Source: an uncultured Bacteroidales bacterium (GTDB taxonomy: Bacteria; Bacteroidota; Bacteroidia; Bacteroidales; Bacteroidaceae). From it: a DNA stretch of 49,535 bases. Positions 13,471-47,625 of the stretch are shown here, in pieces; position 1 is the stretch's first letter, and each line of letters starts with the position of its first letter. The stretch is from contig CACZXN010000014.1 of NCBI GenBank assembly GCA_902785075.1, forward strand, positions 1 to 49,535. The letters are read 5' to 3'. The position numbers and the translations under genes are program-made. The notes under the pieces were generated by a model. The model had not been told where the DNA came from, searched no databases, and was given only the letters and a program-made list of their open reading frames with translations.

Positions 13471-13615
13471 AATCCTTTTTTTTCTTTGTATGGGTCAACT
13501 CCAATATCATTGCCATAATTTTTCGTCCTACCAAATTTAGAAATTTAGTATTTAGGGGGTATAATATAAAAAAATTAAAATATTTTTTTTTATATCTACT
13601 ACTCATAAACTACAT
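13471..13615. other. AT-rich intergenic stretch, no gene seen
   Basis: This part of the 566-bp convergent gap between the HTCS gene and asd is AT-rich, with T and A runs at 13475-13485 and 13560-13595. No open frame, RNA structure or promoter of the TAnnTTTG type was found in it. Confidence 0.6.
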
Positions 13616-13647
13616 ATCTAAATATCTAAACATCTAAACATCTTAAC
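13616..13647. repeat. Four tandem copies of an 8-bp repeat (ATCTAAAC type)
   Basis: Consecutive units read ATCTAAAT, ATCTAAAC, ATCTAAAC and ATCTTAAC with no gap. This is a short microsatellite just before the palindrome array. Confidence 0.85.
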
Positions 13648-13674
13648 TCTGGCGTCAAATCAGAAAATTATTTT

Positions 13675-13772
13675 CCCTTAAGGGGAATTTTTGTTACCCC
13701 TAGGGGCTACAAAATTTTCCCCTAGGGGCTGCACATTTTTCCCCTAGGGGCTGCAAAAATTATCTTTAGGAG
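13675..13772. repeat. Phased palindrome array, 22-bp period (array 1)
   Basis: Four 10-bp palindromes are present: CCCTTAAGGG at 13675-13684 and CCCCTAGGGG at 13697-13706, 13719-13728 and 13741-13750. Their centres are exactly 22 bp apart. The 12-bp spacers are A/T-rich, with T or A tracts (such as CTACAAAATTTT and CTGCACATTTTT). A fifth, degraded unit (TCTTTAGGAG, 13763-13772) falls on the same register. The palindromes have no loop, so they look like sites for a dimeric DNA-binding protein rather than RNA hairpins. The array lies between convergent genes, so it is not an obvious promoter element. It is related in form to the array at 46266-46470. Confidence 0.85.
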
Positions 13773-44848: not shown

Positions 44849-45964
44849 CTATTTGATCTCCGAATAATAATACCTCACGTCCTGACCTACTGTACTTGAG
44901 CCTCTCATTCCTTCGAAGTCACCAAGGGGATTGACTCCGTTGATGCGCATGAGGCGGTTTTTGCACTTACATGCCTGGACGAGCATACTCAGTTGCAAGA
45001 ATTGCATTCCAGGTTTACCATACCAGTCAAGCCCCTGCACGTTCTCCGTCTTGGTGGCGAGGTCGTAATAATAGTTAGCGGAGCCGTAGTACTGATCATC
45101 TTCCTCGTAGTCTTCACGCACCATGTTGCCGTAGGTGTCGTATGCACGGCTTTCGACAACTACACTCCATTCACCTTCAATACCATTGCCCTTGCGTGTC
45201 TCGCGCACCACCTGTCCGTTCTGTTCGATGTATTCGATGTAGGTCTCGTTCTTTCCGTCCTCCCATCCGTTGGTCACGATATTGGTATAATGGCTCACAC
45301 GGCCGTTCTGGTCGTATTCCCTCGTGGTCGTGATATTGGGGAAGAACTCATCTTCCTGAGTTTTATGGCCATACGCTATTTCTTCAATCCGCTGGTTCAG
45401 TGCATTGTAGGCATAGGTGGTCTTCGACTTACTGAGTGTGTTGCTCGGTGTCATAAGAGATTGGCTCAAGTGTTCCACACAGTTTCCACGCTGGTCGTAG
45501 GTGTAGCTGTCCGTGACGAGACAATTCACCTTTCCGTCTTTGTCGAACATCTTCGTTTCTTGCTTCATCATACGGCCTTCGTCGGTATAGGTTGCACGAA
45601 CCTCTGTCAGCTGAACGTCTTTGCCATCAACCTCTTGGTATTGGTCCTCTCCCACACAGAAACCACGCTTATCGTAGTGGTAGATGTGCTTCTCGGGTGT
45701 GAAACTTGTAGCTATCAGTAACATTTCTGCAATCCGCCCTTGAGCGTCGTAAGCGAAACGGAAAACGCTTTTACCGTATGATGCCACATTCACGATGCTG
45801 TCGAGACGGTAAGCATACTGACCTGGAGCAAGATTACGACGGGTGGTGAACTTTACAGAGTCTTGACCTGGAGCCAACACCCTCTGTACTTTCTGTGCCA
45901 TCGCAAAGAGCGAGATGCACAACATGACTTGAATTAAAACGATTTTTTTCATAACTTTGCACAA
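44849..45964 (-). CDS. Exported YD-repeat-like protein, paralogue of the DUF4419 protein's C-terminal half
   Basis: The track start at 45964 precedes a second ATG at 45952 (MKKIVLIQVMLCISLFAMAQ), which is the likely start of the signal peptide. The mature part consists of repeats of the form Y-(D/N)-x-x-G/N-(R/Q) (FAYDAQGRIAEM, YHYDKRGFCVGED, YTYDQRGNCVEH, YDTYGNMVRED). It ends with RYYYSEIK, like the 814-residue neighbour. Nucleotide similarity between the two genes is high in places, for example near 45120 and 41892. Such repeats make beta-sheet shells in RHS/YD proteins, but no toxin core is present. It is the first gene of the three-gene cluster. Confidence 0.75.
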   Translation of the reverse strand: MCKVMKKIVLIQVMLCISLFAMAQKVQRVLAPGQDSVKFTTRRNLAPGQYAYRLDSIVNVASYGKSVFRFAYDAQGRIAEMLLIATSFTPEKHIYHYDKRGFCVGEDQYQEVDGKDVQLTEVRATYTDEGRMMKQETKMFDKDGKVNCLVTDSYTYDQRGNCVEHLSQSLMTPSNTLSKSKTTYAYNALNQRIEEIAYGHKTQEDEFFPNITTTREYDQNGRVSHYTNIVTNGWEDGKNETYIEYIEQNGQVVRETRKGNGIEGEWSVVVESRAYDTYGNMVREDYEEDDQYYGSANYYYDLATKTENVQGLDWYGKPGMQFLQLSMLVQACKCKNRLMRINGVNPLGDFEGMRGSSTVGQDVRYYYSEIK

Positions 45965-45999: not shown

Positions 46000-46250
46000 T
46001 TTTGTTTTCCACCAAGAAAATTAGTTTACAAAAAATTTACATTTTCCGCATTTCGTCACTATATTCGTACTTTCGTCACTTTTCCCCCATTTCATCGGTG
46101 TTTTTGGCAAAATCGTCTTTTGAAATTATCAAAAATGTCCTAAATACTCCAATTTTAAGGTGTAAAATTGCCAAATTGCCCCATTTCATCGACAAAAATT
46201 TGCTGTATCGTCTTTTGCGACTTAAGAAACGATAAAATTACCAACACATA
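46000..46250. other. AT-rich non-coding stretch with spaced TCGTC/TCATC motifs
   Basis: No credible gene occurs in this part of the 700-bp gap. TTTCGTCACT occurs at 46051 and exactly again at 46071. Related TTTCATCGG and AATCGTCTTT follow near 46090 and 46111, then TTTCATCGA and ATCGTCTTTT near 46184 and 46207. Steps are about 20 bp. This may be an outlying part of the array that begins at 46266. Confidence 0.5.
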
Positions 46251-46265
46251 AGGAAATTTGTTTTT

Positions 46266-46470
46266 CTCCCCTAATGTATTTTTATTTTCCCTTAAGGCAA
46301 TTTTATATTTCATAGTATGAAATGTATGTTTCATAGTTTGAAACGTACGTTTCATAGTTTGAAATGTACGTTTCGTAGTACGAAACATAAATTACCCTTA
46401 GGAGAAAAATCTTTTTCTGTTAAGGGAAAATACTTTTTTCATTAGGGGTAACATCTTTTTCTTCAGGGAG
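46266..46470. repeat. Phased palindrome array, 21-22-bp period (array 2)
   Basis: Ten palindromic or half-palindromic cores have centres at about 46272, 46293, 46315, 46336, 46357, 46378, 46399, 46421, 46443 and 46464, so the steps are 21-22 bp. The outer cores are CCCCTAATG, CCCTTAAGG, CCCTTAGGA, GTTAAGGG, ATTAGGGG and TTCAGGGA. The inner four are odd palindromes: TTTCATAGTATGAAA, TTTCATAGTTTGAAA (twice) and the perfect TTTCGTAGTACGAAA. A second palindrome, GAAACGTACGTTTC, interleaves halfway between them. T and A tracts fill the gaps. The array sits in a divergent intergenic region. The open frame across it merely reads 21 bp as 7 codons and is not a gene. Confidence 0.85.
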
Positions 46471-46633: not shown

Positions 46634-46641
46634 TAACTTTG
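46634..46641 (+). promoter_or_regulatory. -7 box (TAACTTTG) for the exchanger gene
   Basis: TAACTTTG lies 31 bases before the ATG at 46672. It rules out the earlier in-frame start at 46639, which falls inside the box. Confidence 0.75.
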
Positions 46642-46671
46642 CACCAAAGTTTTGGGTCAAAGCAAAAAGAT

Positions 46672-47625
46672 ATGTGGTTATTCATCATCAAATTTATCGT
46701 AGGGTTGCTCTTAGTCATTAAGGGGGCAGATTTCCTGACAGACGGAGCTTCATCGATTGCACGAAAGTTCAAGGTGTCGACCCTCTTGATTGGGCTTACC
46801 ATTGTGTCGTTTGGCACCTCGCTCCCCGAATTGGTGGTCAGTTCGGTTTCGGCTCTGAAAGGCAGTAGCGATATGGCGATGGGAAATGTGATAGGTAGCA
46901 ACCTGTTCAACACACTTGCTATCGTGGGAGTTACGGCTCTGTTCTGCCCAATCGTGTGCAAGAAGGATTTACTGCTTCGCGACCTACCTGTAAATGTACT
47001 AGTGACATGCACCTTATTTGTGATGGTGTACTATTGCTACGGAATTGGCACTCTGACTAGAATGGAGGGTATCACACTGCTTATCATCTTCGCCATCTAT
47101 ATGGGATTCACCATCTACACCTCGCTCAAATCCTCGAAACGGGCAGAGGAAGTATCTACAGAGCCATTTATGCCAATGTGGAAAGCCATCCTGTGGATTG
47201 TATTAGGCTTAGTAGCCCTCGTATTTGGCGGCAATTGGTTTGTTGACGGAGCAGCAGGCATTGCAGGCGAATTGGGTGTCAGCGAATCAGTAATTGCGCT
47301 CACGATTGTATCAGCAGGCACATCGTTCCCAGAGCTGGCAACCTCAGTCGTAGCTGCACGCAAAGGGGATACAGATATGGCGATGGGCAATGTGGTTGGT
47401 AGCAATATCTTCAACATCATGTTTATCCTGGGTGTAGCATCTGTCATCAACCCAATTACAGCAAATGGTATCGAGATTCTCGACTTCAAGATATTGCTCT
47501 TCAGCATCCTGCTGCTTACAGCATTCTGCGTAATTGGCAAACGTCACAGAATCGGCAGATGGCAAGGAGCAATCCTAACCATTTGTATGATTGCCTACTA
47601 TGTGTATTTGGTCTATTCAGCATAG
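46672..47625 (+). CDS. CaCA-family Na+/Ca2+ exchanger (YrbG-like)
   Basis: The protein has 317 residues from 46672. About ten membrane helices fall in two halves related to each other. Each half carries the alpha-repeat signature: GTSLPELVVSSVSALKG (48-64) and GTSFPELATSVVAARKG, each followed by D(M/T)AMGNV(I/V)GSN. These acidic and Ser/Thr/Asn residues bind the cations. The protein likely exports Ca2+ from the cytoplasm in exchange for Na+ or H+. Its size is normal for bacterial members. It stands alone, downstream of array 2. Confidence 0.94.
   Translation: MWLFIIKFIVGLLLVIKGADFLTDGASSIARKFKVSTLLIGLTIVSFGTSLPELVVSSVSALKGSSDMAMGNVIGSNLFNTLAIVGVTALFCPIVCKKDLLLRDLPVNVLVTCTLFVMVYYCYGIGTLTRMEGITLLIIFAIYMGFTIYTSLKSSKRAEEVSTEPFMPMWKAILWIVLGLVALVFGGNWFVDGAAGIAGELGVSESVIALTIVSAGTSFPELATSVVAARKGDTDMAMGNVVGSNIFNIMFILGVASVINPITANGIEILDFKILLFSILLLTAFCVIGKRHRIGRWQGAILTICMIAYYVYLVYSA

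What the first reader, a model, noticed from the sequence alone, without database searches (positions are those of the whole stretch)
46266..46470. Second, larger phased array with two interleaved palindrome families
About ten cores keep a 21-22-bp step over 200 bp. The outer cores resemble array 1 (CCCTTAAGG, ATTAGGGG), while the four inner ones switch to TTTCATAGTTTGAAA-type palindromes at a strict 21-bp step. GAAACGTACGTTTC forms a second symmetry point halfway between. One array thus holds two core sequences on one periodic frame, as if spacing and symmetry were conserved and sequence was free to change. This one is in a divergent gap, array 1 in a convergent gap, so the shared feature is structural and not tied to gene direction.
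Basis: partly seen in the sequence, partly recalled or inferred. Interest (0 to 1): 0.8.

Follow-up and report, generated by a model that had tools for sequence, protein, structure and literature searches.

The report
Binding ladder for an HU-type protein
A stretch of evenly spaced palindromes between two genes looks like a docking ladder for one member of a family of histone-like proteins, each of which seems to read its own version of the ladder, so the spacing stays fixed while the letters change.

Summary
The array is real. At 46268-46469 four TTTCATAGTATGAAA-type units step by exactly 21 bp, flanked by CCCTTAAGGG-type units at 21.5-22 bp. It is one of 8 'a-type' arrays among at least 57 phased arrays in gaps of this Bacteroidaceae genome. 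In six related genomes lags of 21-22 bp between similar dyads are enriched with differing cores; 329 kb of mixed control contigs shows none.

The key link: genes for HU domain + winged-helix proteins (Pfam HU-HIG) carry such a repeat near their own promoter. Of 48 such genes, 48 have a best upstream period of 21-23 bp (42 significant), against 24 significant of 281 control genes. In this genome one paralogue's leader holds the window's a-core and another's the b-core. Six of seven named gut Bacteroidales genes repeat it. At one gap behind rplS four species carry arrays with four different cores; the G014 one matches that genome's own HU-HIG leader.

So the frame is conserved, but the core most likely follows a cognate, diversifying DNA-binding protein. 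Binding, autoregulation and the role of dispersed copies are inferred. No paper describing this was found.

The parts
46268..46276 (.). left outer core, degenerate (CCCCTAATG)
   Evidence: read directly
46289..46297 (.). left outer core CCCTTAAGG, centre 46293.5, 21.5 bp from the first inner centre
46308..46322 (.). inner a-type unit 1, TTTCATAGTATGAAA, centre 46315
46329..46343 (.). inner a-type unit 2, TTTCATAGTTTGAAA, centre 46336
46350..46364 (.). inner a-type unit 3, TTTCATAGTTTGAAA, centre 46357
46371..46385 (.). inner a-type unit 4, TTTCGTAGTACGAAA, centre 46378 (paired A-T to G-C change in both arms)
46396..46403 (.). right outer core CCCTTAGG, centre 46399.5
46418..46426 (.). right outer core around TTAAGGG, centre 46421.5
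46441..46448 (.). right outer half-core ATTAGGGG
   Evidence: read directly
46462..46469 (.). right outer half-core TTCAGGGA
   Evidence: read directly
13674..13752 (.). array 1: outer-type units only (CCTTAAGG, CCCCTAGG x3)
46639..47625 (+). right-hand gene: Na/Ca exchanger family; its likely true start is the ATG at 46672, behind a TAACTTTG box at 46634-46641
   Evidence: Pfam PF01699; start and box read
44849..45964 (-). left-hand gene, weak RHS-repeat match, function not assigned

Best explanation
The window array is a ladder of duplex-DNA binding sites for a dimeric HU-type protein of the HU-HIG family with a C-terminal winged helix, most likely the a-type paralogue of this genome (contig C15, 40200-40823, minus). 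One dimer would sit on each 21-22 bp unit, two helical turns, so neighbours lie on one face of the helix. The winged helix would read the symmetric core; the HU fold would fix the spacing. Each paralogue has its own core, so when a protein's specificity changes its arrays change with it while the frame stays. The array at the paralogue's own promoter probably autoregulates it; the dispersed copies, this one included, are probably docking sites for local DNA architecture or regulation. Shown by sequence: the arrays, the frame, the promoter association, the core sharing between leader and dispersed sites. Inferred: binding, one dimer per unit, autoregulation, and the role of the dispersed copies.
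For: (1) Four HU-HIG/wHTH paralogues of this genome carry 21-bp arrays just behind their promoter, each with a different core: C15 a-type, C50 b-type, C23 d-type, C96 e-type. (2) Upstream of 48 such genes (48 of 50 fetched loci; two had too little upstream) the best period among 12-40 is 21-23 in 48 of 48, significant in 42; controls 55 of 281 and 24 of 281; Fisher p about 2e-29. (3) Seven genes from named Phocaeicola, Bacteroides and Parabacteroides records: 6 of 7 significant, 7 of 7 with period 21 or 22; one of them (L362) is nearly the same gene and array as L353 of the first set. (4) The array lies within 60 bp of a TAnnTTTG box in 32 of the 39 loci that have one (no control for chance boxes). 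(5) Leader cores recur dispersed in their own or a near genome: G009 C10 in 4 places, C4 in 1, C28 in 3, C1 in 2 (one is itself); the G006 c-core in 3 places of G007; the b-core in 2 and the a- and d-cores in 1 each of this genome's 400-kb sample; none in the control contigs. (6) At the rplS gap of G014 a 22-bp array (period p 0.002) shares 31 12-mers with that genome's own HU-HIG leader, 12 with the G015 one, 0 with the other 20 leaders compared. (7) The same a-type array stands in front of the matching gene (80% identity) in G004, while the flank on one side does not align. (8) In the apparent b/c orthologues (no tree made) the recognition region changes (ATGLERSTASREL to ATGLCRSSASADL) together with the core (GTTGC..GCAAC to GTTCG..CGAAC). 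(9) Unrelated cores keep one register: outer to a or b 21.5 bp, TATTAATA to CCCCTTAATGGG 22 bp. (10) The model shows an HU fold plus a winged helix (146-207, pLDDT 78-93 in ten-residue means), matching HU/IHF and wHTH chains.
Against: No binding data. Core similarity correlates with protein similarity (Mantel p 0.001 for wHTH, 37 loci), but the HU part predicts it better (rho 0.33) than the winged helix (0.24) or the recognition region (0.18), so 'the winged helix reads the core' is not favoured by that test. The outer CCCYTARGGG units have no assigned protein, nor have most dispersed cores of G004 and the commonest dispersed core of the G009 sample (ATACGA..TCGTAT). G007 has dispersed c-arrays but no c-type gene was found in its 69%-complete assembly. 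Twelve of 22 genus leaders had no dispersed match in the partial samples, and the only match of a thirteenth (L312) is itself. Six of 48 leaders are not significant; some AT-rich ones (L326, L352) could be simple repeats; in seven of 48 the scored window ends more than 180 bp before the start codon. The 48 include near-duplicate pairs (for example L313/L324, L347/L350). The control genes come from four genomes only, with fewer resamplings (floor 1/61). The period test does not itself test symmetry. The structure model is weak as a whole (mean pLDDT 68.7, pTM 0.39; one Foldseek match at E <= 0.001).
Confidence: 0.77

Rival explanations
1. Mobile or dispersed mosaic palindromic repeats (BIME/REPIN- or MITE-like) that spread by an unknown transposase; the frame is only the repeat unit length.
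For: At least 57 copies in gaps of this genome, presence/absence between species, mosaic make-up. In b-arrays with mixed loop orientation the order is always GGTCG then CGACC, 7 of 7, so each element is close to a whole palindrome.
Against: No Y1/RAYT transposase found in the genome (85.5% complete). No target-site duplication or clean empty site could be shown. It does not explain why HU-HIG upstream regions hold a 21-23 bp repeat in 42 of 48 cases, nor a common register across unrelated cores. Spread by some copying process is still compatible with the binding-site reading.
Confidence: 0.14
2. RNA (or single-strand) hairpin elements: the transcribed array folds into tandem hairpins that regulate transcripts.
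For: Leader arrays would be transcribed in many HU-HIG genes (array behind the -7 box by up to 60 bp in 19 of 39). Stems change with compensation (GTTGC/GCAAC to GTTCG/CGAAC) while the loop GGNCG is shared.
Against: Cores with no loop (CCCCTAGGGG, GAACATATGTTC) share the frame. Arrays occur with any gene orientation, and in 13 of 39 HU-HIG genes lie upstream of the -7 box. A two-turn spacing has no obvious reason in RNA. No Rfam family matches the window.
Confidence: 0.06
3. Neutral minisatellites: tandem palindromes grow by slippage and hairpin-primed copying and drift in concert.
For: Copy number varies; arrays lie in gaps; many relatives lack the rplS one.
Against: Strict 21-22 bp period across unrelated sequences and genera, association with one gene family, conservation of the a-array at the HU-HIG gene while one flank diverges, core sharing between a gap array and its genome's leader.
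Confidence: 0.03

Closest known systems
HU-HIG family (Pfam PF18291) / HU_rel (TIGR01201)
   Same: The candidate binding proteins score above the Pfam cut-off (44.6-60.1 bits against 26.2).
   Different: They miss the NCBIfam HU_rel cut-off (35.5-67.8 against 68.6). No cognate DNA site for this family was found in the papers searched.
BrickBuilt MITE of Porphyromonas gingivalis (PMC4596501)
   Same: Dispersed, intergenic, array of 23-nt tandem repeats in a Bacteroidales genome; the shortest one (84 nt, no terminal inverted repeat listed) lies beside a PF00216 HU-type gene in the paper's Table 1. That may make it the same kind of thing; not tested.
   Different: Described as a MITE with 12-nt IS5-like terminal inverted repeats and leader/tail segments up to some 300 nt; period 23; no link to the HU-type protein is drawn in the parts read.
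BIME / REP elements with RAYT transposases
   Same: Dispersed intergenic mosaics of palindromes.
   Different: No RAYT found in the genome; strict two-turn ladder; tied to HU-HIG promoters.
Autoregulated regulators with paired palindromic boxes about 21 bp apart (ArgR boxes; recalled)
   Same: Dimer sites on one face of the helix, repeated at two turns.
   Different: Here three or four or more units, many paralogues with different cores, and dispersed copies.

Membership tests
HU-HIG protein family (for the candidate trans-acting protein) | Match to PF18291 above its curated cut-off | tested here: met
   all 6 proteins scanned, 44.6-60.1 bits, cut-off 26.2
HU-HIG protein family (for the candidate trans-acting protein) | HU fold plus extra C-terminal domain (here wHTH) | tested here: met
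   AlphaFold model, mean pLDDT 68.7, pTM 0.39, wHTH part 78-93 in ten-residue means; Foldseek hits to HU/IHF and to wHTH domains such as PKZ Zalpha and CzrA, only the best at E <= 0.001
Operator/binding array of that family (for the window feature) | Core shared with the leader array of a paralogue in the same genome | tested here: met
   C15 gene leader holds the a-type core in four units; it is one of the 8 a-type loci found by BLAST and parsed
Operator/binding array of that family (for the window feature) | Physical binding by the protein | not testable with these tools
   needs EMSA, footprint or ChIP
BIME/REP | RAYT (Y1_Tnp, PF01797) in the genome | tested here: not met
   0 matches in an 85.5%-complete genome; the same search rings in 5 of 14 control genomes
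BrickBuilt-type MITE | IS5-like terminal inverted repeats with target-site duplication | tested here: inconclusive
   elements end in outer units with A/T runs (by eye); only a few flanks share sequence; no clean empty site
Rfam RNA families | Gathering-score match in the window | tested here: not met
   0 matches

The most novel reading that the evidence does not exclude
Bacteroidales carry a set of parallel, orthogonal DNA-addressing systems: paralogous HU/winged-helix proteins, each autoregulated through its own two-turn ladder and each with its own dispersed ladders over the chromosome. Protein specificity and all its sites change together, so that even at one conserved gap the ladder is re-written from one address to another. 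It would be a bacterial counterpart of rapidly evolving, protein-defined chromosome landmarks.
Probability: 0.35. Interest if true: 0.92.

Novelty: new variant of a known kind. Interest (0 to 1): 0.82.

Why it matters
If right, it gives a candidate DNA target, readable from sequence alone, to a Bacteroidales DNA-binding family for which none was found in print; it turns unexplained intergenic repeats (perhaps including BrickBuilt) into candidate binding sites; and it offers a natural series of protein/DNA pairs with fixed geometry and changing specificity, in which co-evolution of a histone-like protein and its sites can be tested.

Tried and rejected
RAYT/REP membership: searched, none. Empty-site and target-duplication analysis at the antiporter, 4Fe-4S, tRNA and other gaps: flanks too diverged for a clean junction. 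Shared flanks as mobile-element ends: mostly absent; a few unrelated dispersed repeats instead. Coding explanation (21 bp = 7 codons): set aside by eye, because variation in the a-units is not mainly at third positions. ParB/parS: recalled consensus has a different inner spacing; not tested. Rfam: nothing. A regulon of the a-type sites: neighbours of the eight loci are diverse (L19, Glu/Gln-tRNA synthetase, LuxS, exonuclease VII, DsbD and others; two short neighbours not scanned), no common function seen. Phage origin: one weak hit of 50,697 phage records and one weak viral contig. A first, too strict dyad detector missed the c-type arrays and was replaced. Two of the own-genome loci fetched around BLAST hits (L030, L033) held no array and were dropped, which leaves 55 fetched plus 2 in the window.

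Full report
What is there. The window is contig C14 of a 2.9-Mb draft genome, 85.5% complete. Between a minus-strand gene (44849-45964) and a Na/Ca exchanger gene (46639-47625) lie four inner units at exactly 21 bp, framed by degenerate CCCTTAAGG-type units. The symmetry between the units follows from tandem palindromes and needs no second explanation.

It is a genome-wide family. BLAST with the array and with a second element finds dozens of places. I parsed 57 elements, both window arrays included: 8 with a-type inner units, 18 with b-type by the loose pattern TTGC-N7-GCAA (mostly GTTGCAGGTCGTGCAAC), 31 counted as outer units only, two of which (L017, L021) hold odd inner units. In 54 of 57 no open frame of 90 codons or more overlaps the array; in three (L016, L022, L088) one of 106-167 codons does, which I take as spurious without test. 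Neighbours are tandem 29, divergent 17, convergent 9, unknown 2. Inner families were not mixed in one array. Steps: inner 21 bp (22 of 22 a-a, 32 of 33 b-b); outer-outer 22 bp in 76 of 94; outer-inner 21.5 bp, half of each, in 37 of 44. In b-arrays of mixed loop orientation the order is GGTCG then CGACC, 7 of 7.

The frame outlives the sequence. I counted pairs of similar dyads at every lag from 12 to 70 bp. Lag 21/22 counts: this genome (400 kb) 6/4, G009 0/13, G215 1/2, G327 0/4, and, sampled around repeat hits, G004 1/9 and G007 14/0, against means of 0.06-0.18 per other lag. In 329 kb of loci around antiporter homologues, mostly Clostridia with some other Bacteroidota, the counts are 0/0 (one pair at lag 42). 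The G215 signal is weak: another lag reached 3 there, as one did in G327. The cores differ: ATACGATCATTATCGTAT in G009, GAACATATGTTC and GTACGCTCCTTGCGTAC in G004, GTTCGTCGCCCACGAAC in G007. Unrelated cores share one register, for example TATTAATA to CCCCTTAATGGG at 22 bp.

Orthologous gaps. Behind rplS and its terminator this genome has four a-units, G007 four c-units and G013 three b'-units; the outer parts of G007 and G013 align while the stems differ. G014 has a fourth kind, GAGTGCGCACTC in four units at 22 bp (p 0.002). The other ten genomes viewed there show no array by eye (G001, G003, G004, G005, G009, G010, G011, G012, G015, G016). The G014 array shares 31 12-mers (one mismatch allowed) with the leader of that genome's own HU-HIG gene, 12 with the G015 one and none with 20 other leaders of the genus. 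Other gaps with different cores in two species: L110 with L202, L014 with L204 (one flank), L113 with L126, and the window gap with L044 (downstream gene only). The opposite case is one locus with the same a-type array in this genome and in G004 (L012 and L207): the array aligns well while the flank on one side does not.

The gene next to that one conserved array gave the lead. It encodes an HU-HIG protein. The genome has 12 HU-HIG matches. Four, all about 210 aa with a C-terminal winged helix, carry a 21-bp array directly behind their promoter, each with its own core: C15 a-type, C50 b-type, C23 d-type, C96 e-type. Of six others tested, one (L306, glycine-rich tail) has a significant 22-bp period and five have none; two more lie at contig starts without upstream sequence.

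Test across genomes. A profile of six such proteins matches 12 of 17 genomes of the genus and 49 of 121 of the family, 16 of 30 genera. I used 50 loci: all 23 genus matches and one for each of 27 further genomes, as the tool returned them, of 72 places listed. Two had too little upstream sequence. In the 330 bp (or what was there) upstream of the other 48, the best period among 12-40 bp was 21 in 37, 22 in 8 and 23 in 3; 42 were at the resampling floor of p 0.005. Of 281 control genes (at least 120 bp gap; four genomes; 60 resamplings) 55 had a best period of 21-23, and 24 were significant with it; these include at least one HU-HIG gene and several dispersed arrays. Fisher p is about 2e-29, or 1e-27 on a common score threshold, 39 of 48 against 19 of 281. 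The null is a first-order Markov resampling and tests periodicity, not symmetry; some of the 48 are near-duplicates. A TAnnTTTG box (recalled Bacteroidota -7 consensus) lies within 60 bp of the scored window in 32 of the 39 loci that have one, window downstream in 19 and upstream in 13; chance boxes were not controlled for. In seven loci the scored window ends more than 180 bp before the start; in two of them (L322, L329) another array near the promoter is seen by eye.

A second set. Seven homologues in records deposited as plasmids of Phocaeicola massiliensis, Bacteroides finegoldii and Parabacteroides distasonis (the last from another family) were tested the same way: period 21 or 22 in 7 of 7, significant in 6; one of the six (L362) repeats the gene and array of L353, so it is not independent.

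Same core at leader and elsewhere. Leader arrays of 22 genus genes were searched in six sequence samples. Four G009 leaders hit 4, 1, 2 (one is the gene itself) and 3 places in G009 and none elsewhere; the other two had no hit, also with the array near the promoter as query. The G006 c-leader hits 3 places in G007. This genome's b-leader and the G016 b'-leader hit 2 places each in this genome's sample; the a-leader hits one place here and the G004 leader; the G004 a-leader hits itself. None hits the control contigs. The d-core has one further copy on contig C1 of this genome; the e-core has none among the loci held. Twelve of the 22 leaders had no hit in these partial samples.

Mechanism, with what is shown and what is not. 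A two-turn spacing kept across unrelated sequences, with and without a central loop, argues for duplex DNA read by a dimer on one face of the helix. The association with upstream regions of one DNA-binding gene family names the candidate. That the protein binds, represses itself and decorates the dispersed arrays is inference. One telling pair is the apparent b and c orthologues, where the recognition region and both arms of the core change together while the loop GGNCG stays (no tree made). The outer CCCYTARGGG units remain without a partner, as do most dispersed cores of G004 and ATACGA..TCGTAT in G009.

What is known. Ten searches of open-licence papers, for BrickBuilt, palindromic repeats with RAYT, tandem palindromes, 22-bp palindromic repeats, mosaic elements, short tandem repeats at helical turns, HU-HIG, HU superfamily, HU domain with winged helix, and HU autoregulation, listed no paper describing this (listings only). 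I recall a 2017 paper on HU/IHF clades that named HU-HIG; it is not held and was not read. BrickBuilt of P. gingivalis (abstract, sections on identification, structure and locations, first part of the homology section, and passages read) is the closest described element: 23-nt arrays, intergenic, 19 copies. Its Table 1 places the shortest copy beside a PF00216 DNA-binding gene, an untested lead that it is the same kind of thing. In PMC3733652 (GTAG/CGTC palindromes) and PMC5771137 only passages were seen.

Verdict. The likely cause is a diversified family of HU-type proteins, each with its own ladder. I put 0.77 on the arrays being cognate sites of these proteins, and much less on any particular role of the dispersed copies.

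Noticed in passing
L290 around 14017 (G215): Three 22-bp GCCGACGGC-type palindromes appear to lie inside a coding frame that reads like PrmC (by eye), as if an array had been taken into a gene.
   Followed up: no
window about 46010-46097 and L035 left flank: An 87-bp stretch beside the array is 94% identical to the flank of another element; an unrelated dispersed intergenic repeat.
   Followed up: no
window about 13530-13660 and L026 left flank: Array 1 and the array of L026 share about 127 bp of flank at 90.6% identity, so these two loci are copies of a larger unit.
   Followed up: no
L105, L107, L110, L098: A further 22-23 bp family with cores CCTCGAGG / CCTCTAGGAGG and spacers like AACACTTGTAA joins on to CCCCTAGGGG units.
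   Followed up: partly
L306 (contig C87), upstream of an HU-HIG gene with glycine-rich tail: A significant 22-bp period (TTTGCAAACAATACA...) suggests other HU-HIG subtypes have ladders too.
   Followed up: partly
L307 (contig C47): An HU-HIG gene without winged helix has two outer-type units (CCCCTAGGGG, CCCCTTAAGGGG) upstream; a possible partner for the outer core, but the period test there was not significant.
   Followed up: partly
many element flanks, e.g. L019, L024, L026, L096: A recurrent motif like GGCAATGATATAG...TTGGCACAAATGC lies beside elements (read by eye; short BLAST matches).
   Followed up: no
BrickBuilt_14, PGN_0871/PGN_0872, P. gingivalis (PMC4596501, Table 1): The shortest BrickBuilt copy (84 nt, no inverted repeats listed) lies beside a PF00216 HU-type gene, as the ladder model would predict.
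   Followed up: no
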